A DNA stretch of 64,000 bases from Leeuwenhoekiella parthenopeia (GTDB taxonomy: Bacteria > Bacteroidota > Bacteroidia > Flavobacteriales > Flavobacteriaceae), in assembly GCF_020782115.1 (NCBI RefSeq), contig NZ_JAJGMW010000025.1:1-64000 (forward strand). The letters run 5' to 3'. Within the stretch, counting starts at the first letter, position 1. Each line of letters starts with the position of its first letter. Below, one piece after another: positions 9,032 to 56,798 of this stretch. The notes under the pieces were generated by a model. The model was not told where the DNA came from. It saw only the letters and a list, made by a program, of their open reading frames with translations, and did no database searches. The position numbers and the translations under genes were made by a program.

Positions 9032-9037
9032 GCAGTT

Positions 9038-9147
9038 GCAGTCTCAGTTGGCAGTCTCAGTTGGCAGTCTCAGTTGGCAGTTGCAGGTTGCAGGTTGCAG
9101 GTTGCAGGTTAAAAGTAAAAAACGATTGAACGATTGAACGATTGAAC
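9038..9147. repeat. Nested short tandem repeats
   Basis: Three copies of the 13-mer GCAGTCTCAGTTG (9038-9076), then four copies of TTGCAGG (9081-9108), then three copies of AACGATTG (9121-9144). They lie between the S9 peptidase stop and the next gene. Related words occur at 6384-6480 and, on the other strand, in the 89-base repeats at 56.3 kb. Confidence 0.85.
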
Positions 9148-13754: not shown

Positions 13755-16457
13755 TTACAACTTATACGTCACTTTAAACAAAAGGGTTCTGGGCTGAATA
13801 AAGGTGCGCTGGTCTGTAATTAGAAACTGACTGAATGAATTGCTGGCTTTAAACTGAATGTCAAAAATGTTTTGAGCCTCGAGTTCAAAACCCCAGGCAC
13901 TTCCTTCCTTTTGGTAAAACAAACTGGCACCGGACTCCTGAAAGCGATTGATTTGATTTTGATTGGTATTCTCGTAATAGGTAAACTCGTACTTCGCTTT
14001 AAGAATAAAGTCGGTTAAAAAGTCATAATCCAGATAAGCAAAAGGCGTGATGCGCTGAAAATTACTTTCAAAAGCAGACGAACTGAAATCGCTGAAGCTG
14101 TGACGCAAACCCGTCTCCAGATTGGGCCAGTTGTCAAAAGAAGTTTCAGTCTTAAAATTATAACCGTAGTTGAGCGAGTTATAGTCTAGAAGTTCAGAAT
14201 TTATGATGCGCGAATAGTCTGAAAGATTCAGGTTTCCGCCCAGGGTAAAACGGTAATCTCCCAGCTTCTTGGTAAATGAAGCATTTGCACCGTATGAATT
14301 CTCAGGCAAATCGGTATAAATTAAGGTATTGACCTGATCGATTCCTTCGAGCGTCGTTGTACTGCGAATAGACTGCTCTCTGTGCACATAACTCAAGCCG
14401 GCGTGCATCACAATACCGCGGTAGAGACTGAATTTGGAATAGAAAAGCGAAGCACTGTGCGACAGCTGATTTTCTAGATTTTGATTACCGGCAAACAAGC
14501 TGTTAAAGCTGCTTAATCGGAAACGGTTTGCCAACTGCGAGGCATTGCCAAACTGAGACCTGCGGCTGTAGTTGAGTTTCAGTTTTTCGCCACTGTTTAT
14601 TTCCCATTCTACCAGCAGTTCCGGCAACAAAACCGGCCTGGTTGCGCCTACCTGCCGCTCGTCAAGCTGATCAACCGTCCAGTAATAATAATGGTAGAAC
14701 AATCCCGGTTTAAAGATAAAATCATCGGCTTTTGCTTTATACTGAAATCCGAAGTAACTATCGCTCAGTTTAAAAAGCACCTCATTATTAAAGCCGGCTG
14801 CAGTGAAGTCAGCCTCGCTTTGATCATTGAGCACCTGAGCATCGTTTGAAAAATAGCTTTGATGACTTACCTCAACCCCGGCCTCGGGATAGATATGATG
14901 AAAACGGTGTAAGACCCAGTAATGCTTGGCATTGATATTAAAATCATACTGAGCAGCCCGGGTGTTTTGCAGCAAATTATAGGTATCATCTTCCCTGTTA
15001 AACGGAATAATACCGGAAAATACCGGGCGGTTAAACAACCAGTCGCGGTCGTTTTCGTTTATACTGTATTGAAAAGCCGCTTCAACCGTACTGGTATGCT
15101 TGTAAGAGAACTGGCGGTTATAGCTCACGTCAGTCTTAAAGTCGAGGGATTGAGGTTGCGTACGGGTATCGGCAAAGGTGTTTTGACCCGGCGTTTGCGA
15201 AACTAAACGATTCATCCCATCTCCCTTGCTGGTTTTAAGATAGGTCGCCGCATACAGATCCACATCACTATCAGGTATGTACCGTAGGCGTATTTTATTC
15301 AGCGTAAATAACAGGTTGCTATTTGTGGTTACCGTTCGGTTTTCCTGGCGTTCATCGTCAGTAAGATAGATAAAATCGCTTTCGTTACGCGTTTCCAGCT
15401 TTCCGTTAGAAACAATGGAATAGGCGTCTAAATTAGTAGATTTATTTAACTCCTGTGAAACGCTAAAGGCGCCAAACTCATTTTTATTGTAAACGAAATC
15501 CTCATTGTTTAAAAACTGCACAAAATCATCGTTGCGCAGATTAAAATACGCCGAAGGATCTTTGCTCAATAAACTAAAGCCCCCTTCAAAATTGATGTAA
15601 TCACTTAACGAAAAAGACTTTTCGCCTATATTATTAAAGTCCCCAATCAGGTTTACAGCGGTTTTAGAGCTGTAGTAAAACAAATTGGGATGAATCAAAT
15701 ACCGGTCTTCCACTCCGCCTCCTACTTCAACATCTCCAAAAGCAAATTTTTTTTTGCCTTCTTTGAGTTTAATGTTCAGCACCATCTTATCGCTGTCGCT
15801 CAGGCCTTTCAAAAAAGCAACCTCGTTGTAATTATCAATTGCTTCAACCTCATCAACCGCATCAGCCGGAATATTGTTAACGCCCAGTTTCTCATCGCCG
15901 GTAAAGAAATCTTTGCCTTCCACCATAAGTTTGGTCACTTCTTTCCCGTTTACCGTGGCATTCCCATCGCGGTCTATCTCAACCCCGGGCAGTTTTTTAA
16001 GAATATCGCGTAGTTTGCGCTCTTCGCCGGTCACAAAATTATCGGTGCGATAGGTTATGGTATCTTCACGCACCTTAACCGCCAGGCGTTGTTTGATGAC
16101 GATTTCGCCCAACTGATCGCTAAGGGGTTTCATGATAAAGTCGCGCTCCGTATCCTCAGTCAGACGAAGGGTATCTGTAATTTTAGTATACCCCATATAA
16201 CTCACTTCTACCCGATACGCAATACCACTTTCCAGGCGCAGGCGGTATAGCCCCTCAGCACTTGAAATTGCAAATCGCGTTTGATAACCCGTTTCCTGTG
16301 GAAAGGCCAAAATATTGGCATTGGGTAACGGCCTAGCTACAGTATCTTTTACCGTGCCGGTTAGTTGGGTGTTTTGGGCGTGGCTAAAGAAAAATCCCGC
16401 TAAAAATAATAGTCGAAAAATTGTGAATTTGAGGTTCTTCAACCGGATAAAACTCAA
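13755..16457 (-). CDS. TonB-dependent receptor-like outer-membrane protein of the GLPGLI array
   Basis: 900 residues: signal peptide (to about 27), CarboxypepD_reg-like domain (about 30-110, LTGTVKDTVARPLPNANIL), plug-like domain (about 115-230, with LKKLPGVEIDRDG and LMVEGKDFFTGDEKLG), then a large beta-barrel ending in an aromatic-terminated strand (TLLFKVTYKL). It belongs to the CarboxypepD_reg/OMP barrel group commonly found beside GLPGLI genes. It lies 52 bases downstream of GLPGLI copy A on the same strand. Two truncated copies of its first about 100 codons occur at 17.7 and 19.3 kb. Substrate and direction of transport are unknown. Confidence 0.85.
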   Translation of the reverse strand: MSFIRLKNLKFTIFRLLFLAGFFFSHAQNTQLTGTVKDTVARPLPNANILAFPQETGYQTRFAISSAEGLYRLRLESGIAYRVEVSYMGYTKITDTLRLTEDTERDFIMKPLSDQLGEIVIKQRLAVKVREDTITYRTDNFVTGEERKLRDILKKLPGVEIDRDGNATVNGKEVTKLMVEGKDFFTGDEKLGVNNIPADAVDEVEAIDNYNEVAFLKGLSDSDKMVLNIKLKEGKKKFAFGDVEVGGGVEDRYLIHPNLFYYSSKTAVNLIGDFNNIGEKSFSLSDYINFEGGFSLLSKDPSAYFNLRNDDFVQFLNNEDFVYNKNEFGAFSVSQELNKSTNLDAYSIVSNGKLETRNESDFIYLTDDERQENRTVTTNSNLLFTLNKIRLRYIPDSDVDLYAATYLKTSKGDGMNRLVSQTPGQNTFADTRTQPQSLDFKTDVSYNRQFSYKHTSTVEAAFQYSINENDRDWLFNRPVFSGIIPFNREDDTYNLLQNTRAAQYDFNINAKHYWVLHRFHHIYPEAGVEVSHQSYFSNDAQVLNDQSEADFTAAGFNNEVLFKLSDSYFGFQYKAKADDFIFKPGLFYHYYYWTVDQLDERQVGATRPVLLPELLVEWEINSGEKLKLNYSRRSQFGNASQLANRFRLSSFNSLFAGNQNLENQLSHSASLFYSKFSLYRGIVMHAGLSYVHREQSIRSTTTLEGIDQVNTLIYTDLPENSYGANASFTKKLGDYRFTLGGNLNLSDYSRIINSELLDYNSLNYGYNFKTETSFDNWPNLETGLRHSFSDFSSSAFESNFQRITPFAYLDYDFLTDFILKAKYEFTYYENTNQNQINRFQESGASLFYQKEGSAWGFELEAQNIFDIQFKASNSFSQFLITDQRTFIQPRTLLFKVTYKL

Positions 16458-16509
16458 AAAGTTAATATTAATTACGAATTAAGAATAAATTTTAAAAACA
16501 GAGATCATT

Positions 16510-17238
16510 TCAATTATCAGGAACCAATTTGTTTGCATAAGTATTTAATTCACTAAATTTAATCTTCTTACCTGTTGTTGGCTTTGAAATTGCCGTTAGT
16601 TCTACTGGACTGTATTTAATTTTAGTGGCGAAATAGTGTTCATTCCTCAATTTCAAATCTAAAATTAGACCCGGCAAATTACCATATCCCAATGGCCCAG
16701 AGCTTATCGGTATTTCTGGGGTAAACCAAGCCTCTACAAAAAAATCGTCAAAATCATCTTCTGCTAAATTTGATTGATTGGAATAGGCCCTATAACAAGT
16801 ATAGCCCATGATTTCTTTCTGCTCATCAGTAATAGTCCACTCAATAGCACGTAACGCAATCAAAAACTCTTCATTAAAGGCAGTCATTTGCCATACTCCC
16901 TTTTTTTCTAAAAGCTCCATGTAATACTTACCGCTATATGGCCCTAAAGCGAGTTCCAGATAATTATCACCATCCTTTTTCATTAAATCTTCATTTAAAA
17001 ACAAAGACTTTTCTTTACTAAATCTCAATGTATAACGAAGCTGTTCCATTGATAACTCCTTTTGTTTTTCAATCTTTTCAAATTTAGCATAAGCATCAGG
17101 ATTTTTAGACTTAAGGCTCATACCCTTATTTGTCAAATAAAAAGGTGTATCAATTTCTTTCTGATAAGTTACCGATCCTGACTGAGCTAGTAATTTAGCA
17201 GTTAAGATAAATACTACTATTAAAACAATATTTTTCAT
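16510..17238 (-). CDS. GLPGLI family protein, copy A
   Basis: 242 residues with a signal peptide (ends LLAQSG). The family hallmark is the motif YGNLPGLILDLKL near residue 183, preceded by AWFTPEIPISSGPLGY. The mid-part IMGYTCYRAYS matches the K-x-IG-x-Y-x-C-Y-K-A segment shared with the other three copies. The family is periplasmic or surface-associated in Bacteroidetes and has no established function; genes are often next to TonB-receptor-like proteins, as here. In copy A the first G of GLPGLI is N. The gene follows the small peptide A and an intercistronic hairpin. Confidence 0.9.
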   Translation of the reverse strand: MKNIVLIVVFILTAKLLAQSGSVTYQKEIDTPFYLTNKGMSLKSKNPDAYAKFEKIEKQKELSMEQLRYTLRFSKEKSLFLNEDLMKKDGDNYLELALGPYSGKYYMELLEKKGVWQMTAFNEEFLIALRAIEWTITDEQKEIMGYTCYRAYSNQSNLAEDDFDDFFVEAWFTPEIPISSGPLGYGNLPGLILDLKLRNEHYFATKIKYSPVELTAISKPTTGKKIKFSELNTYANKLVPDN

Positions 17239-17259
17239 TTATCATTGAATTATAAGATA

Positions 17260-17288
17260 AAGCCTAATGAGACATTATCATTAGGCTT
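17260..17288 (-). terminator. Intercistronic hairpin between peptide A and GLPGLI A
   Basis: An 11-bp perfect stem (AAGCCTAATGA and its complement, loop 7), followed on the minus strand by TTTATCTTAT. It sits just after the peptide A stop and before the GLPGLI A start. It probably attenuates transcription or protects the 3' end of a peptide mRNA. Confidence 0.6.
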
Positions 17289-17313
17289 AATTAAATTTTA
17301 AATTAATACAGAC

Positions 17314-17508
17314 TTATTCGCAATTGTTTCTGTAATACCAGTCCATGTAATACCAACGGCCATAATCTGTTGTACCGTGAGTATTACCATACTCCCAAGC
17401 TTCATCAAAGCAACTTCCCTATTCTGCATCTACAAACTCTATTTCTTGTGCACTTGCATTAAAAACAAAAAACATTAGGAGGGCCAGTGTTGAAATAGTT
17501 TTCTTCAT
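17314..17508 (-). pseudogene. Small secreted two-cysteine peptide A, interrupted by TAG
   Basis: A 65-codon frame. The signal peptide MKKTISTLALLMFFVFNASA (residues 1-20) is followed by a mature part with two cysteines, Cys33 and Cys63, separated by 29 residues rich in Tyr, Trp and Asp. Codon 30 is TAG (17419-17421), nine residues after the predicted cleavage site. The frame is otherwise clean and ends in TAA. Peptide B at 18777-19019 has the same layout and position. Either a recent nonsense mutation, read-through, or a sequence error explains the stop. It is too short for normal gene callers. Confidence 0.55.
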
Positions 17509-17659
17509 AATAAATAAAATTTTAAATAATTAAACAATAAATTTTGTTTCGAAACATGGTGAATTTAATTAAGTAAATATTATTAATAGAATTAAAGACC
17601 TTACAATAAGTAGGCGTTTTTCACTTTATTCCAAATTATCTGTCAAAGCTATTTCTTAT

Positions 17660-17930
17660 GATATCATTATAAAATCATGCTCGCCATCCTTTTCAAACAA
17701 AGGGATCTGTATTTTTTTTGTAATTCATATAACCCACCTCAACCCGGTATGCGATACCGGTTTCTAGGCGCAGGCGGTAAAGACCCTCAGCACTGGAAAT
17801 CGCAAAGCGCGTCTGGTGACCGGTTTTCTATGACGGAGCTAAATATTTGCATTTGGAGGTGGTTTAGCTAAATTGCCTCTTGCCGTGTCCGATAGATGAA
17901 GATTTTGGGAATAGGGAAAATATATCCCAA
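17660..17930 (-). pseudogene. N-terminal remnant B of the array receptor
   Basis: Translating the minus strand gives GHQTRFAISSAEGLYRLRL, nearly identical to residues about 57-76 of the full receptor at 13755-16457. Upstream, only degenerate sequence with stop codons matches NANILAFPQETG. Homology stops after the DFI of the CarboxypepD_reg domain (GEHDFIM here, ERDFIMK in the full gene). The 3' flank then resembles that of remnant C, including CCTTACAATA. It lies between GLPGLI B and peptide A. Confidence 0.8.
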
Positions 17931-17993
17931 CACTAAAAAAAAAAGGGAATTAAAATATATTCTTTAAGAAATTGATTCCTAACAAATTCACTT

Positions 17994-18707
17994 TTAGTTT
18001 TTGCGATTTTTATAAACCTCGGCAACAATCTCTTCATACTCATTTTCTGACATCTTTATTCCTTTTGATGGCTTGAGGATATTTATCTCTTTATTGTCTG
18101 AAAATATAATTCTTTTCAAGAAAGTAGTAATACCATTATTTTGCAATTGTAAAATTAGTCCAGGTAATCCGCCATAACCATCAGGCCCAAATGGAACAGG
18201 AATTTCTGGTGAATACCAAGCTATAACTTGTAACTTAAAAGTTCCTTCTGAATTTTTGATTATCCTATTAGAAACCGCTTTATAACAAACAAAATCATCA
18301 ATTTTTTGCGATTCTTTAGTTAATACCCAATCAATATTATTTCTAGTTACCAAATAAGTATCTCCCGCAAATTCTTTTTGATGAATTATACTATTGGACA
18401 ATCGATCATAATATACAATACCTGAGAAATTCGCTACCCCTTCTACAATTGCCTGCGTGACTGGATCTGTATCCTTGTTTAAGGATTTATTTTTAGTATA
18501 TAAAGCTTTATTAGAATTAAACTTAAGCCTATACTCAAGCGAAGTAACATTATTTGAAATATTCTGATTGAAAGCATTATCCTCAATAGTAATATTTTCA
18601 TTTGAGGCTGAAGGTAATTGCTTGCCATAGTACGCGTTACCTGCTTGAGCCAGAAAATCACAAGGAATAAAAAATACAACTAAGATTAAAACAATTTTTT
18701 TAATCAT
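17994..18707 (-). CDS. GLPGLI family protein, copy B
   Basis: 237 residues; signal peptide to about 20 (CDFLAQ). Motifs: AWYSPEIPVPFGPDGYGGLPGLILQ near residue 168-192 and IDDFVCYKAVS, as in the other copies. The remainder diverges strongly from copy A, so the duplication is old or under diversifying change. It is intact, preceded by peptide B plus a hairpin and followed by receptor remnant B instead of a whole receptor. Confidence 0.9.
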   Translation of the reverse strand: MIKKIVLILVVFFIPCDFLAQAGNAYYGKQLPSASNENITIEDNAFNQNISNNVTSLEYRLKFNSNKALYTKNKSLNKDTDPVTQAIVEGVANFSGIVYYDRLSNSIIHQKEFAGDTYLVTRNNIDWVLTKESQKIDDFVCYKAVSNRIIKNSEGTFKLQVIAWYSPEIPVPFGPDGYGGLPGLILQLQNNGITTFLKRIIFSDNKEINILKPSKGIKMSENEYEEIVAEVYKNRKN

Positions 18708-18725
18708 AAAATTTTGTTTAAATAA

Positions 18726-18755
18726 AAAGAGCCAAGGACAAAGTTTGGCTTTTGA
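18726..18755 (-). terminator. Intercistronic hairpin between peptide B and GLPGLI B
   Basis: On the minus strand AGCCAA, a nine-base loop and TTGGCT (18730-18750) are followed by CTTTTTATTT. It has the same position and AGCC/GGCT stem core as the hairpin in unit A. Confidence 0.6.
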
Positions 18756-18776
18756 TAGTCATAATCAAAGTACAAA

Positions 18777-19019
18777 TTAATTCTGTCCTGAAGCTTCCAT
18801 GCAGGAATCATATGCGGCTGAAAACACTTGATAGCCTTGCTCATACGAAGGTATAATACGATGTTGAACCATATAGTCCATGAATGCATCTTCGGCTGCT
18901 TCACCTGCCTCCCAGCAATCTACTCGAACTAACATTTCAAGATTCTCTTTTGCTTCTAAGTTAAAGGAGCTAATCATAATGAAAGCTGTTGCTGTAAATG
19001 AAAATAATTTTTTTCTCAT
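18777..19019 (-). CDS. Small secreted two-cysteine peptide B
   Basis: 80 residues from the ATG at 19019. An earlier in-frame start at 19046 would add nine residues before the MRKK basic end of the signal peptide and is less likely. The signal peptide covers about residues 1-23 (ends NLEA). The mature peptide of about 57 residues is acidic, with Cys34 in VRVDCWEAGEAAEDAF and Cys71 in YDSCMEAS, 36 residues apart. These could form a disulfide. It resembles peptide A only in layout and in a weak match around VD-x-C/E-x-A. No family is recognised. It is the first gene of the unit peptide B - hairpin - GLPGLI B. Confidence 0.7.
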   Translation of the reverse strand: MRKKLFSFTATAFIMISSFNLEAKENLEMLVRVDCWEAGEAAEDAFMDYMVQHRIIPSYEQGYQVFSAAYDSCMEASGQN

Positions 19020-19134
19020 TACTAAAAATAATTTTGAATTAAACATATTGTAATATCACAAAGTCTTATTATACTTCCGAAGAAAAAGCCTTACAATAAA
19101 TAAGCGTTTTAAAAATTCTAATTAGGTTATTTTT

Positions 19135-19465
19135 TTATATCTCATAGCACTTTCTCGTGATTACCTTTATAAAATCATGCTGGCCATCCTTTGTCAGACG
19201 AAGGGTATCTGTAATTTTAGTATACCCCATATAACTCACTTCTACCCGGTATGCGATACCACTTTCCAGGCGCAGGCGGTAAAGCCCCTCTGCACTGGAA
19301 ATTGCAAATCTCGTTTGCTGACCCGTTTCTTGAGGAAAGGCCAAAATATTGGCATTGGGTAAAGGCCTCGCTACAGTATCTTTTACCGTGCCGGTTAGTT
19401 GAGTGTTTTGGGCGTGGCAAAGTAAAGAGCAAAAAAAAAAGTATGTTTAGTAGAAATAATTTCAA
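19135..19465 (-). pseudogene. N-terminal remnant C of the array receptor, with a T10 tract
   Basis: About 100 codons almost identical to the start of the full receptor: AQNTQLTGTVKDTVARPLP, then QTRFAISSAEGLYRLRL and YMGYTKITDTLRLTKDG. It ends at DFIKVITRKCYEI and a stop right after the CarboxypepD_reg domain. A TTG start at 19465 gives a good signal peptide (MKLFLLNILFF), but a run of ten T (10 A on the plus strand, 19431-19440) shifts the frame. Nine T would restore it. It is either a slowly decaying fragment or a short slippage-switchable protein. It lies right after GLPGLI C. Confidence 0.75.
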
Positions 19466-19471
19466 AAAGTT

Positions 19472-20196
19472 TTAATTGTAAGCTCCTAAATTTCTCAGCA
19501 TTTTTTTTAGGGTACTGGCTAAATCTTTCTCCTCAATAGCTATACCTTTTTTAGGTTTTTCTATATCTATATTGATTTCTGTGCTAAGGTTCAACTCGGT
19601 AGCTGTATAAGTGATTTTTCCCAACTCAACCTGTAAAATCAGACCCGGTAACCCGGAAAAATACAAAGGACCTATCGACACCGGTATTGCCGGGGTAAAC
19701 CACACAACAGTTGTAAATTTCATATCCTCGGTATCTTTATTTGGTGCTTTTCTAATGGTGGTAAAAAATGCCTTTCTACATTGATAATACCGATCATTTT
19801 TGTTTCATTGGTAATCTCAAAATTGGGATGATTCTGTTTAACCAAAAACAATTCGCCGACATATTCAACCTGATGTAATGAATAATTTTGATCTAATGGG
19901 GTATAATACCTGCCTTTACCCCCGCCAGATCGAATGGCATAACTACTAGCTCTGGTATCATCTCGCCCCATCATATCTATACTTTCAAAAAGAGCCGCCT
20001 TTGAATTAAATGAGAGCTCATAGCGCAAATCATCAAAAGCCTTACTGATATCCTTATTGCTAATAAAAACCAAGTTTCCCTGATTTTTGGGTGGAGCAAT
20101 TTCTTTTTTATAAATAATGCTTCCACTCCACCCTTGAGCTGAACAGATACAGCTAGTAAGTATAAAAAGAATTAAAAAGTGAAACCTATAGGACAT
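19472..20196 (-). pseudogene. GLPGLI family protein, copy C, one-base frameshift
   Basis: The first part runs from 20196 with a signal peptide (SCICSAQ) to KMIG, then continues in a wrong frame and stops near 19720. The second part, in another frame, supplies FTTVVWFTPAIPVSIGP and SGLPGLILQVE to the end at 19472. All copies have IG-x-Y-x-C-x-K-A here. The DNA reads ATCGGTATTATCAATGT where one more A (GGTAATTATCAA) would give IGNYQCRKA, so a single A is missing near 19791. The remainder is intact, so the loss is recent or a sequence error. Confidence 0.8.
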
Positions 20197-20346: not shown

Positions 20347-21057
20347 TCAATCCCGTAAATAACCCTTGAGTTTTTGATTGGCTTCTGTTCTGGAAATGAC
20401 TTTAAGATTTGGCAATTGAATTTCTTTAAAATCAGGAAGATTCAATGATATCTCGGTAGCTTCAAACCTTAAATCATCATCAAAATTCACCTGTAAAACC
20501 AGACCCGGAAGTCCGCTGTATAAATAAGGCCCATATTGCACAGGAATCTCTGGGGTATACCAGGCTTCAAATTCTTTTTTGACCGGGCCGCTATTGCCTT
20601 CCCCTAAAATATAACCTCTCGCTTTATAACATTTATAATCACCAATTTTTTTAGTCTCATCTACCAACGCCCATACCGGCAGATTCTCTTCTATTAAAAC
20701 ACCTCCCATCAAACCTCCGGTCGTAAGAATTCTTTGTGGATTTTGGGTGGTGTACGTCTGCTTCTTTGCACCTGATTGAACAAGCATAGTGTTACTGGTC
20801 TTCAAATTGTTTAAGTCAATCTCTCCTTCATTAAAAGCTATATCTGTTTGAAATTTAAGAATAAGCTGAACAGGTTTTGCGTTACTGTATGAATCGAGCA
20901 ACCTTGCTTTAACCCCCGGACTAATTGACATGGCCTCTATCTCTTTGATATTTTTTTCCACATCAATTGAAACTCGATAATGAATCTCTCCATTATTTAT
21001 TTGGGAATAGCCCAATTGAAAAAACAGGATCATAAATAGCATTAGTAAATTCTTCAT
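20347..21057 (-). CDS. GLPGLI family protein, copy D
   Basis: 236 residues with a signal peptide (LMLFMILFFQLGYSQ). The hallmark reads YSGLPGLVLQVNFDD, preceded by EAWYTPEIPVQYGPYL, and IGDYKCYKARG matches the other copies. It is intact and first in the array on the minus strand, with no peptide gene or receptor fragment attached. It lies 223 bases after the response regulator gene on the same strand, so co-regulation by that two-component system is possible but unproven. Confidence 0.9.
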   Translation of the reverse strand: MKNLLMLFMILFFQLGYSQINNGEIHYRVSIDVEKNIKEIEAMSISPGVKARLLDSYSNAKPVQLILKFQTDIAFNEGEIDLNNLKTSNTMLVQSGAKKQTYTTQNPQRILTTGGLMGGVLIEENLPVWALVDETKKIGDYKCYKARGYILGEGNSGPVKKEFEAWYTPEIPVQYGPYLYSGLPGLVLQVNFDDDLRFEATEISLNLPDFKEIQLPNLKVISRTEANQKLKGYLRD

Positions 21058-21280: not shown

Positions 21281-21952
21281 TCAAATAAACCCCCTGTTCC
21301 GTGCCTCCAGAATAAGTTCGCGGTCAGACTCGCCTTCTACTTCAAAGAGAATTTTTAGATTACGCTTACGCTTCTCAACTCCTGCTTTAGACAGATTTAA
21401 AATGTCGCAGAGTTCGGTATTTTTTGTGCTAAGCGAGAGTTCATATAACAACTTGCGATCTGTGCTGTCAATATCAATCTCTGCAACCAGATTCTTGCGC
21501 AGATGCTCGAGAACGGTTACGGTATAGTACGGAGGTTTTGAAATAAGACTTTGTATACCTCTGATGAGTTCGCCGGGGGTCAGATCGCCTTTTAGCAAAA
21601 GTGCATCCGGGTCAATACCTTTTAAAATACTACGCAAACGGTAATGATCACTCAGGGAGGTAAGAATAGCTACTTTGGTTTCCGGGTACTTTTCGCGGAT
21701 TTTCAATCCCAGATCTTCACCCGACAACAGGTTTTTATCACTCCCCACCGGCAATTGCACATCCAGAAAGACCAAATCGCATTTGCTCATATAACTCTGA
21801 TTGTTGTAAAAAGCACCCGCCTCATCCAGATTCAATGCAACCTCAATATTGAAAAGAACCGTTTTATCCTGAGCGATTTGCTCAAAAGCCTGTTTATAGG
21901 CATTTACAATTAATGGATGATCTTCTACGATTAAAACGTGAATGAGTTTCAT
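21281..21952 (-). CDS. NarL/LuxR-type response regulator
   Basis: 223 residues: receiver domain (about 1-135) with the acidic pocket EDH at 10-12, phospho-acceptor Asp64 in VFLDVQLP and the lysine in LLLKGDLTP. A C-terminal helix-turn-helix (about 160-215) contains LSLSTKNTELCDILNLSK, in which the usual LT-x-RE is altered. The ATG overlaps the kinase stop by four bases (21949-21952), so the pair is translationally coupled. It is presumably phosphorylated by the adjacent TPR kinase; target genes are unknown. Confidence 0.9.
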   Translation of the reverse strand: MKLIHVLIVEDHPLIVNAYKQAFEQIAQDKTVLFNIEVALNLDEAGAFYNNQSYMSKCDLVFLDVQLPVGSDKNLLSGEDLGLKIREKYPETKVAILTSLSDHYRLRSILKGIDPDALLLKGDLTPGELIRGIQSLISKPPYYTVTVLEHLRKNLVAEIDIDSTDRKLLYELSLSTKNTELCDILNLSKAGVEKRKRNLKILFEVEGESDRELILEARNRGFI

Positions 21953-23907
21953 AAGGGTATATTGAATGCTATTTGAGTTCCTGAAGAGTCTGAATGTATG
22001 TTAAGAGTTCCGCCTAGATCGGTAATGCGATACCTCAGATTTGTTAATCCGATCCCATCTTTTGCGGTTTTGGCTTCAAATCCCGCGCCATTATCTGCTA
22101 TAGTTCCACTTAAAGTTTTCTCTTTCTGACGCAGTGCAACCTTACAAACCGTCGCATTGGCGTGCTTCATCACATTTTGCAGGCATTCCTGTATGATGTA
22201 GTAAATCGAAATTTTAACCGAATCCTCAAGCTTGCTAAAATCAATAGACTCTGAGATAGTCAGCTCAAAAGAAGTGGCCGTATGTTCATTGAATGTATCG
22301 ATCAGTTTCTTGATCAGTTTTTCAACGCCGTCTTCTGAGGTCAGACTGTTTGAAACCAAATTATGGCTTACGTTTCGTATTTCGGCTTCAATATTTTGAA
22401 GTTCTTTAAGATGTGTTTCTGTAGACGGATTGTCAGATTCTATAAAACCCAGGGCCATTCGGGTACCAAACAACCTGCTGATTACCCCGTCATGGAGGTC
22501 TCTGGCTATACGCTCGCGTTCTTTAACCGCTGCGATTTCCACTTTTTTCTGTTGGTCAAGCAGCAGTTTAAACACCTCGGCATTTGATTCCTTAAGACTG
22601 TTTTGCATTCGGGCTTCAATAAGATTGGCCTTTTGCCTTTGCAAAAACAGAAATACGCCCAGTAAGGTTAGAAGCACAACAGCTGTAAAGCTGATCCAGA
22701 TAATACGCTCGGTTAAGCTTTTATTCTTGTTTATGTATTGATCGGTTTCATAACGTATACGCGCAAATTTGCTGCGTATCCCGCGCTCATCGTTTAAAAG
22801 CTGTTCGTTAAGTACCAGATACCGGTCCAGATAGTCCTGATTTCCGGTAATATTATGAAGTTTTAATAAAGCCTCCAGCTCGTATTTTGCATTTTTTTCA
22901 TCCTGAGCTAAAGCAAGCGCTGTTTGAAGATTAGATAGCGCACGGGCAGTATCTTCGGTGTCTAAATAATATTCCCCAAGTCTGATCCTACTCACCATGA
23001 TCCCGGCTTTATGATCTACACTATCGCGTATATACAAAGCCTCCCGGGACGCTTTTAAAAAATCTTCAGATTCCCCTGCTTTTAATTGAATGTACGCATA
23101 GTTATCTAAAGTCATGGCGTAAAGTTCTGTATCCATCTGCTTAAGGTCATTTACGAGCAAGGCCTGCTTAACATAACTTAAAGCATCCTTGTAAAAACCA
23201 TTTTCCAAAAACACCACCGCTATATTATTAAAACTGTTGGCTAAAAGCTCTTGATCATTAATTTCCAACGCTGTTTTAATGGCTAGCTTATGATGCTCTA
23301 TCGCTTTTTTAAAATCCCCCAGACCATTGTAGATTATGGCAAGATTGTTATGTACGGCATGTATGTCTTTTTTCTTTTTTTCGGGCAAAAGTTCTAATGC
23401 TTTAAAAGAAGAATTTTCACTGCCAATATAATCCCGGGCCTTTTCCTGAGAAATTGCCATCATTAACATCATTTTGCCTGCTTTTGCCTCATGATTTAAT
23501 TCGCTAAACTTCTGATAAGCTTTGTAATATGAAGCATAAGAACTATCCAGACTAGAATTTTTACCATAAAAATAGGCCAAATCCCAGTAGGCGTTGGCTT
23601 CAACATCTTTATCAGATAATTTATGGGCAAGATTTAAAGCTTTAGCATTGATTTTTCTAAATAGCGTGGAGTCTTTATTTAGGTATTCAAGCGATAGTTT
23701 TGAAAGAATAGAAAGCCTAACACTGTCATTTGGAATGATCTGATCTAGGTTTTCTATTTTCTGCAGCGAAACGTCAAAATCTATAAGATTACTATTCTGC
23801 TCATCTGATTTATTTTCCGAGGGCGATGAACAGCTCAGCAAGCCCAGGAGGATTCCTAAGAAGAATAGTAAACTCTTAATGTAACGAAATGAAAAAAATT
23901 CCCTCAT
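21949..23907 (-). CDS. TPR-containing sensor histidine kinase (HisKA_3 type)
   Basis: 652 residues. A lipobox-like LLGLLSCSS near residue 26 suggests the N-terminus is exported. About eight TPR-like helical pairs follow (about 80-380). A transmembrane helix spans about 402-424 and a short coiled coil leads to the dimerisation/phosphotransfer segment ERIARDLHDG with His472. The HATPase domain has NVMKHA, DNGAGF and GIGLTNLRYR. The periplasmic TPR region is the likely sensor. It is first gene of a two-gene operon with the response regulator at 21281. Confidence 0.92.
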   Translation of the reverse strand: MREFFSFRYIKSLLFFLGILLGLLSCSSPSENKSDEQNSNLIDFDVSLQKIENLDQIIPNDSVRLSILSKLSLEYLNKDSTLFRKINAKALNLAHKLSDKDVEANAYWDLAYFYGKNSSLDSSYASYYKAYQKFSELNHEAKAGKMMLMMAISQEKARDYIGSENSSFKALELLPEKKKKDIHAVHNNLAIIYNGLGDFKKAIEHHKLAIKTALEINDQELLANSFNNIAVVFLENGFYKDALSYVKQALLVNDLKQMDTELYAMTLDNYAYIQLKAGESEDFLKASREALYIRDSVDHKAGIMVSRIRLGEYYLDTEDTARALSNLQTALALAQDEKNAKYELEALLKLHNITGNQDYLDRYLVLNEQLLNDERGIRSKFARIRYETDQYINKNKSLTERIIWISFTAVVLLTLLGVFLFLQRQKANLIEARMQNSLKESNAEVFKLLLDQQKKVEIAAVKERERIARDLHDGVISRLFGTRMALGFIESDNPSTETHLKELQNIEAEIRNVSHNLVSNSLTSEDGVEKLIKKLIDTFNEHTATSFELTISESIDFSKLEDSVKISIYYIIQECLQNVMKHANATVCKVALRQKEKTLSGTIADNGAGFEAKTAKDGIGLTNLRYRITDLGGTLNIHSDSSGTQIAFNIPL

Positions 23908-24032: not shown

Positions 24033-24191
24033 TTAATCCTCATCCGGATCTCTTGGCCGCTCCTTATTATTCTCTGAACCGGAGTCACTTACTACAGTGG
24101 TTTCCTCTAAAAAGCGATCGGGTTCACAACTTGTATTTGCAAATGCAACAACAGCAAACAGTACTAACAGGGCGTAATTCTTTAATTTCAT
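24033..24191 (-). CDS. Tiny acidic lipoprotein
   Basis: 52 residues. The N-terminus MKLKNYALLVLFAVVAF is a signal peptide, followed by the lipobox region ANTSCEPD with Cys at residue 22. The mature part of about 30 residues is acidic and ends RPRDPDED. It has a clean ATG and its own terminator. No family recognised. It lies between the two-component system and the LytTR regulator genes, all on the minus strand, and may be a small envelope component of that signalling group. Confidence 0.65.
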   Translation of the reverse strand: MKLKNYALLVLFAVVAFANTSCEPDRFLEETTVVSDSGSENNKERPRDPDED

Positions 24192-25362: not shown

Positions 25363-25390
25363 AATAATAATAATAATAATAATAATAATA
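25363..25390. repeat. AAT trinucleotide microsatellite
   Basis: Just over nine uninterrupted AAT units, followed by AGTAATAGTAAC as decayed copies. It ends 50 bases before the -33 element of the helicase promoter, so copy-number changes could alter upstream spacing. Confidence 0.85.
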
Positions 25391-25440
25391 GTAATAGTAA
25401 CAACCCCACAAACTCCTAAAAACCAACCTTTTCAGTCGCT

Positions 25441-56117: not shown

Positions 56118-56300
56118 ATTCCTAATTTTTTGTATGATTAGATAGTCAAGATACCAATACTGCCGCGAGCAATCAATCTTAGATTCTTAAAGATTTCACA
56201 AAAGTAGAAGGCTATTTTTATTGTTATGATTAGTTCAATTCAGGTATTGTTTCGGGTTTTTTGGGTTTCTAAAGCTGCTAAAAAGTTTAATCGTGGAAGC

Positions 56301-56690
56301 GTGGAAACGTTGAATCGTTTTCTACTTTTCACCTCTCACCAAATAAGAATCAAAACCGGAGATTTCATATTTTGTTTAAGCGTTAAACCGTGAAAACGTT
56401 GAATCGTTATTTGCTTTTCACCTCTTACCAACTAAAAATCAAAACCGGAGATTTCATATTTTGCGGAAGCATTAAACCGTGGAAGCGTTGAATCGTTTTC
56501 TACTTTTCTACTCTTACCAACTAAGAATCAAAACCGAAGATTGCATATTTTGTGGAAGCATTAAAACGTGGAAACGTTGAATTGTTTTCTACTTTTCTCC
56601 TCTTACCAACTAAGAATCAAAACCGGAGATTTCATGTTTTGTGGAAGCATTAAAACGTGGAAACGTTGAATCGTTTTCTACTTTTCACCT
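56301..56690. repeat. 89-bp tandem repeat, 4.4 copies
   Basis: Copies begin at 56301, 56390, 56479, 56568 and 56657 with GTGGAAACGTTGAATCG (slightly variable). Each contains TCTACTTTTC, an AAGAATCAAAACCGG core (56351, 56440, 56529, 56618) and GATTTCATATTTT. Copies differ by point changes but the period is exact. There are no spacers, so it is not a CRISPR. Confidence 0.9.
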
Positions 56691-56727
56691 CTCACCTCTC
56701 ACCTCTCACCTCTTGCTTCTCACCTCT
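56686..56727. repeat. CACCTCT heptamer array
   Basis: Six heptamers, five exact (one TGCTTCT variant at 56714-56720), continuing directly from the 89-bp repeats. Confidence 0.85.
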
Positions 56728-56756
56728 CACTTTCTAATCTCGGTACTTTAATTATT

Positions 56757-56798
56757 GTATTTCGTATTTCGTATTTCGTATTTCGTATTTCGTATTTC
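56757..56798. repeat. GTATTTC heptamer array
   Basis: Six exact contiguous copies, ending 53 bases before the meaB start. Polymorphic length is likely; the array is pyrimidine-rich and could affect promoter geometry. Confidence 0.9.

What the first reader, a model, noticed from the sequence alone, without database searches (positions are those of the whole stretch)
13755..20196. Tandem array: secreted two-Cys peptide - GLPGLI - receptor, with receptor N-termini re-used as repeat units
Seen: on the minus strand the order is GLPGLI C, receptor N-terminus C, peptide B, GLPGLI B, receptor N-terminus B, peptide A, GLPGLI A, full receptor. Both partial receptors end at the same domain boundary (DFI after the CarboxypepD_reg domain) and share a 3' flank (CCTTACAATA). 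This looks like repeated recombination between receptor 5' ends, which adds or removes peptide-GLPGLI cassettes. Known: GLPGLI proteins commonly neighbour TonB-receptor-like proteins and have no established function. Inference: the peptide may be the cargo or signal, the GLPGLI protein its periplasmic or surface partner, and the receptor the gate (import or export).
Basis: partly seen in the sequence, partly recalled or inferred. Interest (0 to 1): 0.78.

Follow-up and report, generated by a model that had tools for sequence, protein, structure and literature searches.

The report
Swappable secreted-peptide cassettes beside outer-membrane receptor
Marine flavobacteria carry a chromosomal locus where tiny secreted two-cysteine peptides, each paired with its own GLPGLI partner protein, appear to be swapped in and out beside one fixed outer-membrane receptor, much like weapon-and-antidote gene arrays; this gives the unexplained GLPGLI family a testable role.

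Summary
The array is real and recurs in relatives. The window (genus Leeuwenhoekiella, inferred) holds, on the minus strand, GLPGLI D, GLPGLI C (frameshifted), a receptor-5' remnant, peptide B, GLPGLI B, a second remnant, peptide A (in-frame stop), GLPGLI A and the full receptor. In 80 related loci, 105 of 188 GLPGLI genes have a small signal-peptide ORF with at least two cysteines just upstream. Among genes with 200 bp free upstream the count is 107 of 138 for GLPGLI and 14 of 355 for others. Peptide cores are under purifying selection; alike cores in different loci come with alike GLPGLIs. Within an array signal peptides are alike but cores and GLPGLIs are mostly unrelated. Two sister-species comparisons show a cassette swap and a cassette insertion, with breakpoints near the signal peptide and receptor 5' end. 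Receptor-5' remnants occur in 15 of 79 other loci. AlphaFold gives a helical hairpin (peptide) and a LolA-like half-barrel (GLPGLI). Best reading: polymorphic peptide plus cognate GLPGLI modules shuffled beside a fixed receptor, GLPGLI most likely acting as immunity/capture protein. The genomics is firm; the function is inferred.

The parts
13755..16457 (-). Full receptor: outer-membrane protein with N-terminal CarboxypepD_reg domain
   Evidence: orthologs 94% (G002), 84% (G005), 83% (G003)
16510..17238 (-). GLPGLI A, intact, receptor-proximal
   Evidence: TIGR01200 127 bits, cut-off 50
17314..17508 (-). Peptide A: signal peptide + two-Cys core, in-frame stop at codon 30 (intact copy exists in L. 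aestuarii, L089:7962-8156)
   Evidence: 22 nt differences fall 2/2/18 on codon positions 1/2/3
17545..17556 (.). Palindrome TGTTTCGAAACA, operator-like, 36 bp upstream of peptide A; only copy in the 4.4-Mb genome
   Evidence: role inferred
17589..17620 (-). Shared flank of unit A (region that follows the response regulator in G002)
17702..17986 (-). Receptor 5' remnant B', decayed (3 stops)
   Evidence: 48% identity
17994..18707 (-). GLPGLI B, intact; LolA-like half-barrel model, pLDDT 92.5
   Evidence: 143 bits
18777..19019 (-). Peptide B, 80 aa, signal peptide + C-x37-C helical hairpin
19079..19110 (-). Shared flank of unit B
19159..19446 (-). Receptor 5' remnant C' (start-like frame and domain frame differ)
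19472..20196 (-). GLPGLI C, frameshifted (two ORFs); intact relative in G002
20347..21057 (-). GLPGLI D, intact orphan (no peptide found)
21281..21952 (-). Response regulator gene, left neighbour of the array
21949..23907 (-). TPR-HisKA_3 sensor kinase gene, left neighbour

Best explanation
A polymorphic cassette locus. Each cassette is a constant promoter region and signal peptide (left end), a variable mature peptide (C-x~31-C, hairpin in the one modelled), its own GLPGLI gene (signal-peptide-bearing, LolA-like half-barrel, expected in the periplasm), and the constant 5' end of one outer-membrane receptor (right end). Recombination in the constant ends swaps or inserts foreign peptide-GLPGLI pairs; one-sided events leave receptor-5' or left-flank remnants, beheaded peptides and orphan GLPGLI genes. 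SHOWN by sequence: pairing, co-inheritance, one swap, one insertion, orphans, selection on both genes. INFERRED: the peptide is Sec-exported, forms a disulfide, crosses the outer membrane through the co-encoded receptor and antagonises relatives that carry a like receptor; each GLPGLI binds its cognate peptide in the periplasm and acts as immunity, so orphan GLPGLIs give immunity to neighbours' peptides.
For: Peptide upstream of 105 of 188 GLPGLI genes; control 107/138 against 14/355, two of the 14 being family-like peptides. Cores under purifying selection, pooled pN 0.161, pS 0.554, 13 pairs (first part; the script failed later). Same-locus signal peptides 64% alike, cores 26%, GLPGLIs 28%; between loci 39, 24, 28%. 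Where cores of different loci are >=50% alike (32 pairs) GLPGLI identity averages 52%; in 31 with a control, 51.7% v 27.5% for non-cognate GLPGLIs of the same two loci, higher in 29. Swap between Psychroflexus salis and P. planctonicus: homology stops about 75 bp into the peptide gene and resumes about 56 bp into the receptor ORF. Insertion in L. aestuarii beheading an older peptide while its GLPGLI stays 99.6% identical to that of L. marinoflava. Receptor-5' remnants in 15 of 79 loci, the three other receptor segments tested in 1; 16 of 18 remnants start within 118 bp of a GLPGLI stop. In arrays of >=3, the nearest GLPGLI relative lies in the same array for 10 of 124. Asymmetry: 2 of 107 peptides lack a following GLPGLI, 70 of 190 GLPGLIs lack a peptide by both tests; orphans are as constrained (pN/pS 0.30, 8 pairs) as paired ones (0.36, 16 pairs). 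Hairpin and LolA-like models.
Against: No toxicity, binding or export has been measured. The peptides are acidic (mean net charge -7.4), unlike typical cationic membrane-active bacteriocins (recalled). GLPGLI-receptor operons without any peptide are common, so orphan GLPGLIs may keep an older, peptide-free role and their constraint is not specific to immunity; among the 38 of 70 orphans with a >=45% relative elsewhere, the best one is another orphan in 19 and a paired GLPGLI in 11. A LolA-like carrier fits escort as well as immunity. Over all pairs of loci the rank correlation of core and GLPGLI identity is only 0.09 (0 of 500 permutations reach it), because most pairs are unrelated. One receptor serves many different peptides and is not shown to touch them. 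Two peptides lack a GLPGLI (L122, L132). The charge relation of peptide and GLPGLI is weak (rho -0.21; N half -0.26; C half -0.06) and not corrected for kinship. In L078 two cassettes are a recent tandem duplicate (97.9% over 1635 nt).
Confidence: 0.48

Rival explanations
1. Export escort: GLPGLI is a dedicated LolA-like periplasmic carrier that hands its cognate peptide to the receptor, which works as an exporter; the peptide is a secreted product of unknown use (signal, adhesin or antimicrobial).
Against: Orphan GLPGLIs without any peptide are kept under purifying selection, and the insertion seen in L. aestuarii spared the GLPGLI but not the peptide.
Confidence: 0.2
2. Private ligand uptake: the peptide is a secreted scavenger (metal or nutrient binder) or pheromone taken back through the receptor; GLPGLI is the specificity-giving binding protein. 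Orphan GLPGLIs exploit peptides made by others.
For: Outer-membrane receptor next to the peptide gene; acidic hairpin; receptor clade goes with peptide type; orphans.
Against: One receptor stays fixed while peptides are unrelated; arrays of up to 8 GLPGLIs are hard to explain by uptake alone; no metal-binding signature was looked for.
Confidence: 0.17
3. Receptor guarding: the peptide plugs or masks the receptor (or the GLPGLI does) to block phages or foreign bacteriocins that use it, and the pairs diversify in that arms race.
For: Fixed receptor with variable small partners.
Against: PADLOC models: no hit for the 5 proteins given; in the two sister pairs compared the DNA alignment runs unbroken through the receptor.
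Confidence: 0.08
4. Plain decaying gene family: tandem duplication of GLPGLI and receptor pieces, small ORFs without function.
For: In the window GLPGLI C, peptide A and both remnants are broken; two cassettes of L078 are a recent duplicate.
Against: Constraint on peptides, enrichment, mostly unrelated members, receptors of this clade in 33 of 236 genera sampled.
Confidence: 0.04

Closest known systems
Vibrio cholerae T6SS effector-immunity modules and orphan immunity arrays (PMC5361080, passages read)
   Same: Foreign effector-immunity pairs inserted at a fixed locus displace the old effector and keep its immunity gene, giving arrays of different immunity genes; homology-facilitated illegitimate recombination proposed. 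The L. aestuarii event has the same form.
   Different: No T6SS found as part of the cassettes; the 'effector' is a small secreted peptide (median mature length 58), the 'immunity' a LolA-like GLPGLI protein, the fixed partner an outer-membrane receptor, and scars are receptor 5' ends on the right side.
SitA modular lipoprotein toxins of myxobacteria (PMC8546572, abstract and outline read)
   Same: Polymorphic toxin families with cognate immunity, conserved N-terminal escort part and variable payload.
   Different: SitA are lipoproteins with nuclease domains moved by outer-membrane exchange; here the peptides match no known domain and sit beside a receptor gene.
rAID orphan immunity arrays of gut Bacteroidales (PMC12247911, abstract and outline read)
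   Different: T6SS-directed and recombinase-associated; no GLPGLI, peptide or receptor named in the abstract.
Oar/PopC of Myxococcus (PMC6434023, search listing and start of abstract)
   Different: Cargo is a protease; no peptide-GLPGLI array is mentioned in what I saw.
PNGF-II N-terminal domain and LolA-like proteins
   Different: GLPGLI lacks the glycanase part; no ligand shown.

Membership tests
GLPGLI family (TIGR01200 / PF09697) | Profile score above curated cut-off | tested here: met
   A 127, B 143, D 117 bits against 50; the larger fragment of broken C reaches 37
TonB-dependent outer-membrane receptor | N-terminal CarboxypepD_reg domain as in many Bacteroidota receptors | tested here: met
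   PF13620 41.6 bits, cut-off 32.3; weak match to an 85-residue SusC-homolog chain, E 0.0022
TonB-dependent outer-membrane receptor | Plug domain, barrel and TonB box | tested here: inconclusive
   No Pfam plug or barrel match at E 0.1; receptor not modelled; plug-like and TonB-box-like stretches recognised by eye only
Polymorphic effector-immunity module | Linked variable pair next to a constant component, exchanged by recombination | tested here: met
Polymorphic effector-immunity module | Orphan immunity genes retained without effector | tested here: inconclusive
   70 of 190 GLPGLIs lack a peptide by both tests and 8 orphan pairs show purifying selection; that they act as immunity is not shown and peptide-free GLPGLIs are common elsewhere
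Polymorphic effector-immunity module | Effector is toxic and its partner protects | not testable with these tools
   needs experiment
Class II microcins / double-glycine bacteriocins | Double-glycine leader exported by a peptidase ABC transporter (recalled) | not tested
   the peptides carry Sec-type signal peptides by a home-made rule; double-glycine leaders and neighbouring transporters were not searched for
Known small-protein families (Pfam, NCBIfam) | Profile match of the peptide | tested here: not met
   101 of the 106 peptides scanned: 0 Pfam families at E 0.001; NCBIfam: 3 members hit IseA (best 1.6e-5), 1 hits PG1828 (5.2e-4)

The most novel reading that the evidence does not exclude
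A new class of interbacterial competition or kin-discrimination system in Flavobacteriaceae: Sec-secreted acidic disulfide-hairpin peptides, each neutralised or captured by a cognate LolA-like GLPGLI protein in the periplasm, moved through a dedicated outer-membrane receptor whose clade sets the peptide fold (alpha-type or beta-type), with the peptide-GLPGLI pairs exchanged as cassettes using the signal peptide and the receptor 5' end as homology arms.
Probability: 0.4. Interest if true: 0.9.

Novelty: new variant of a known kind. Interest (0 to 1): 0.8.

Why it matters
GLPGLI is a family of Bacteroidota without an established role: the held library has 3 papers that name it, passages seen in 2 of them list it without a function (the third not opened), and none for Porph_ging/PF09697/TIGR01200. 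Cognate pairing with an unannotated, variable secreted peptide makes its role directly testable: mix a peptide with its own and with a foreign GLPGLI and measure binding, killing or secretion. If true, it extends effector-immunity array logic to a receptor-linked peptide system in marine flavobacteria and offers about a hundred peptides without a Pfam match (101 scanned) to assay.

Tried and rejected
Rejected: (1) 'small ORFs are noise': the control and the selection test speak against it. (2) 'Arrays arose by duplicating GLPGLI': nearest relative in the same array for only 10 of 124, though L078 does hold one recent duplicate. (3) 'Peptides go with all GLPGLIs': in a phylum-wide draw, 5 of 30 GLPGLI genes in 20 fetched loci scored positive; four are in the window's own family (L187, L206) and the fifth (L198, outside the family) is an unlike ORF 514 bp away that I take for chance. 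GLPGLI loci L073, L077 and L080-L085 had no two-Cys signal-peptide ORF; L086 had only a 31-aa ORF that I do not count. (4) 'The two-component system is part of the system': relatives of the window kinase and regulator lie upstream on the same strand in 3 of 79 loci, all Leeuwenhoekiella; L106 has a 34% kinase match on the other strand. (5) A Bacteroidota promoter consensus (recalled) upstream of peptides: 0 of 105, shuffles 0.85.

Led nowhere: fold search of the peptide model (no match under E 0.001); PADLOC; Rfam and tRNA scans of the window; peptide-profile search of PDB sequences; paper searches for the PNGF-II structure. The random-window control for peptide remnants was uninformative because windows often landed on array peptides (30 of 415).

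Rows dropped: one search dropped one ORF (L124:4886) as unlike the family and added window peptide B, 106 pairs in all; alignment A4 left out L100:6021, L114:13842, L137:12091 and two peptides of L105 identical in the core to those of L104; one search dropped the first three; one search dropped all five; one search excluded the L104/L105 comparison; one search reports 16 loci with an N-terminal remnant, of which I discount L109 (24% identity, likely a paralog), L103's hits come from a failed mask, and L110 had no receptor ORF, 4 of 20 positives rest on the chimeric query L100:6021 and are not counted. One search stopped with an error after its selection table; its last part was redone.

Full report
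WHAT IS THERE. The window most likely belongs to the genus Leeuwenhoekiella: the same-genus handles G002, G003 and G005 have contigs of the same lengths as records of a Leeuwenhoekiella MAG (SP167), L. aestuarii and L. marinoflava. On the minus strand after a sensor kinase and response regulator lie GLPGLI D (20347-21057), GLPGLI C (19472-20196, frameshifted), a receptor 5' remnant, peptide B (19019-18777), GLPGLI B, a second remnant, peptide A (17508-17314, in-frame stop), GLPGLI A and the full receptor.

PEPTIDES ARE REAL GENES. With the receptor alignment I fetched 80 named loci, mostly Flavobacteriaceae (the tool kept the best 80 of 146). Using a home-made signal-peptide rule (no SignalP here), 105 of 188 GLPGLI ORFs have an upstream ORF with a signal peptide and at least two cysteines within 700 bp; some true peptides are missed by the rule (L097, L128). 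In a control on the same loci, restricted to genes with at least 200 bp free upstream, the count was 107 of 138 for GLPGLI and 14 of 355 for other genes, two of the 14 being family-like peptides (L122, L132). Among 106 pairs, 80 peptides have exactly two cysteines in the mature part, median spacing 31 (all but one 25-40), and mean net charge is -7.4. Between homologous cores pN is 0.161 and pS 0.554 (13 pairs). Window peptide A and its L. aestuarii ortholog differ at 2, 2 and 18 first, second and third codon positions. Profile searches of 349 whole genomes each with two peptide families gave 3 and 4 genomes with a hit. One is the window itself; four (G202, G084, G176, G278) lie just upstream of GLPGLI genes with a receptor of this clade close by; one sits near a contig end with no GLPGLI on the fetched piece; one matched only the first 30 positions.

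CASSETTES. Within a locus (66 comparisons) signal peptides are 64% alike while cores (26%) and GLPGLIs (28%) are about as unlike as between loci (24%, 28%). Cores at least 50% alike in different loci (32 pairs) come with GLPGLIs 52% alike on average; in the 31 with a control the non-cognate GLPGLIs of the same two loci average 27.5%, lower in 29. Over all pairs the rank correlation is only 0.09, as most cores are unrelated. Window GLPGLI B is 43-51% identical to GLPGLIs of Winogradskyella, Flaviramulus and a Flavobacteriaceae MAG whose peptides resemble peptide B, and at most 37% to the other members of A2; a single-sequence search found peptide B in none of 59 other relatives. Between Psychroflexus salis and P. 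planctonicus identity is 97.8% up to about 75 bp into the peptide gene, lost over core and GLPGLI, and 90% again from about 56 bp into the receptor ORF. In L. aestuarii a 1.2-kb cassette sits where L. marinoflava has the signal peptide of another peptide; the beheaded peptide and its GLPGLI remain at 98% DNA identity. Remnants of the receptor 5' end lie upstream in 15 of 79 loci (18 remnants) and the other three receptor segments tested in 1 (L153); 16 of 18 start between -1 and 118 bp from a GLPGLI stop. Left-flank scars (3' ends of the response-regulator gene) occur in L. marinoflava and L. aestuarii. In part of the loci the array sits at one site: a penicillin-binding-protein-like gene upstream in 13 loci and CoA-transferase-like genes downstream in 12 (names by eye), so it is chromosomal rather than on an obvious mobile element.

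DISTRIBUTION. Close receptors (E <= 1e-170) are in 33 of 299 genomes drawn from the family, the window's own included, and second-clade receptors (E <= 1e-60) in 32 of 299. In 21 second-clade loci 15 of 32 GLPGLIs have such a peptide. By a simple propensity score their cores lean to beta-type (2 of 16 alpha) and first-clade cores to alpha-type (76 of 103), P 7e-7 without correction for kinship; 27 first-clade cores do not score as alpha. In 20 loci from a phylum-wide draw 5 of 30 GLPGLIs scored positive, four of them in the window's family and one (L198) an unlike ORF outside it.

HOW IT WORKS. Asymmetry is the main clue: 2 of 107 peptides lack a following GLPGLI (the search ran from 900 bp before the first GLPGLI to the receptor, which favours this), while 70 of 190 GLPGLIs lack a peptide by both strict and relaxed tests and are as constrained as paired ones (pN/pS 0.30 in 8 pairs v 0.36 in 16). 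Of the 70 orphans, 16 are at least 45% identical to a paired GLPGLI elsewhere, but where an orphan has a relative at that level (38) the best one is more often another orphan (19) than a paired one (11). Of 83 GLPGLIs without a strict peptide (these orphans without the window's, plus those with only a relaxed match), 16 show a peptide-like piece upstream. This resembles orphan immunity genes in Vibrio T6SS arrays (PMC5361080, passages). I therefore favour a secreted antagonistic peptide with GLPGLI as periplasmic immunity/capture protein and the receptor as gate. The escort and uptake rivals remain open, above all because GLPGLI-receptor pairs without peptides are common elsewhere, so orphan constraint may reflect an older role.

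NOVELTY. No function for GLPGLI and no such peptide system turned up in the searches I made of the held library; subscription papers are mostly not held. The parts are new in combination as far as these searches show; the array logic is of a known kind.

Noticed in passing
window 24033-24191: A 52-aa lipoprotein-like ORF (lipobox then an acidic Ser/Asp tail) beside a LytTR gene is conserved in the Leeuwenhoekiella loci; could be a signal for the neighbouring regulators.
   Followed up: partly
window 17545-17556: The palindrome TGTTTCGAAACA occurs once in the 4.4-Mb genome; all or part of it lies at or just upstream of peptide starts in G002, G003 and G005: candidate operator.
   Followed up: partly
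window 56300-56798: 89-bp unit repeated 4.5 times followed by two heptamer arrays (TCACCTC, GTATTTC).
   Followed up: no
window 9033-9147: Cluster of short tandem arrays with periods 13, 7 and 8 bp.
   Followed up: no
window 25363-25400: AAT trinucleotide run, about 12.7 copies.
   Followed up: no
L071 (G008:C3): Relic of the locus in another Leeuwenhoekiella: truncated kinase next to the receptor 3' part, array not found there.
   Followed up: partly
L116:7360-8067: 178-aa ORF with a Gly-rich tail plus a 56-aa membrane-protein-like ORF upstream of a GLPGLI gene in Psychroflexus salarius; looks bacteriocin-like by eye.
   Followed up: no
L100:6021-6356: ORF that looks like a GLPGLI N-terminus fused to a beheaded peptide core, another possible recombination scar.
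   Followed up: no
L107, L110, L155, L187: Two peptides in front of one GLPGLI gene.
   Followed up: no
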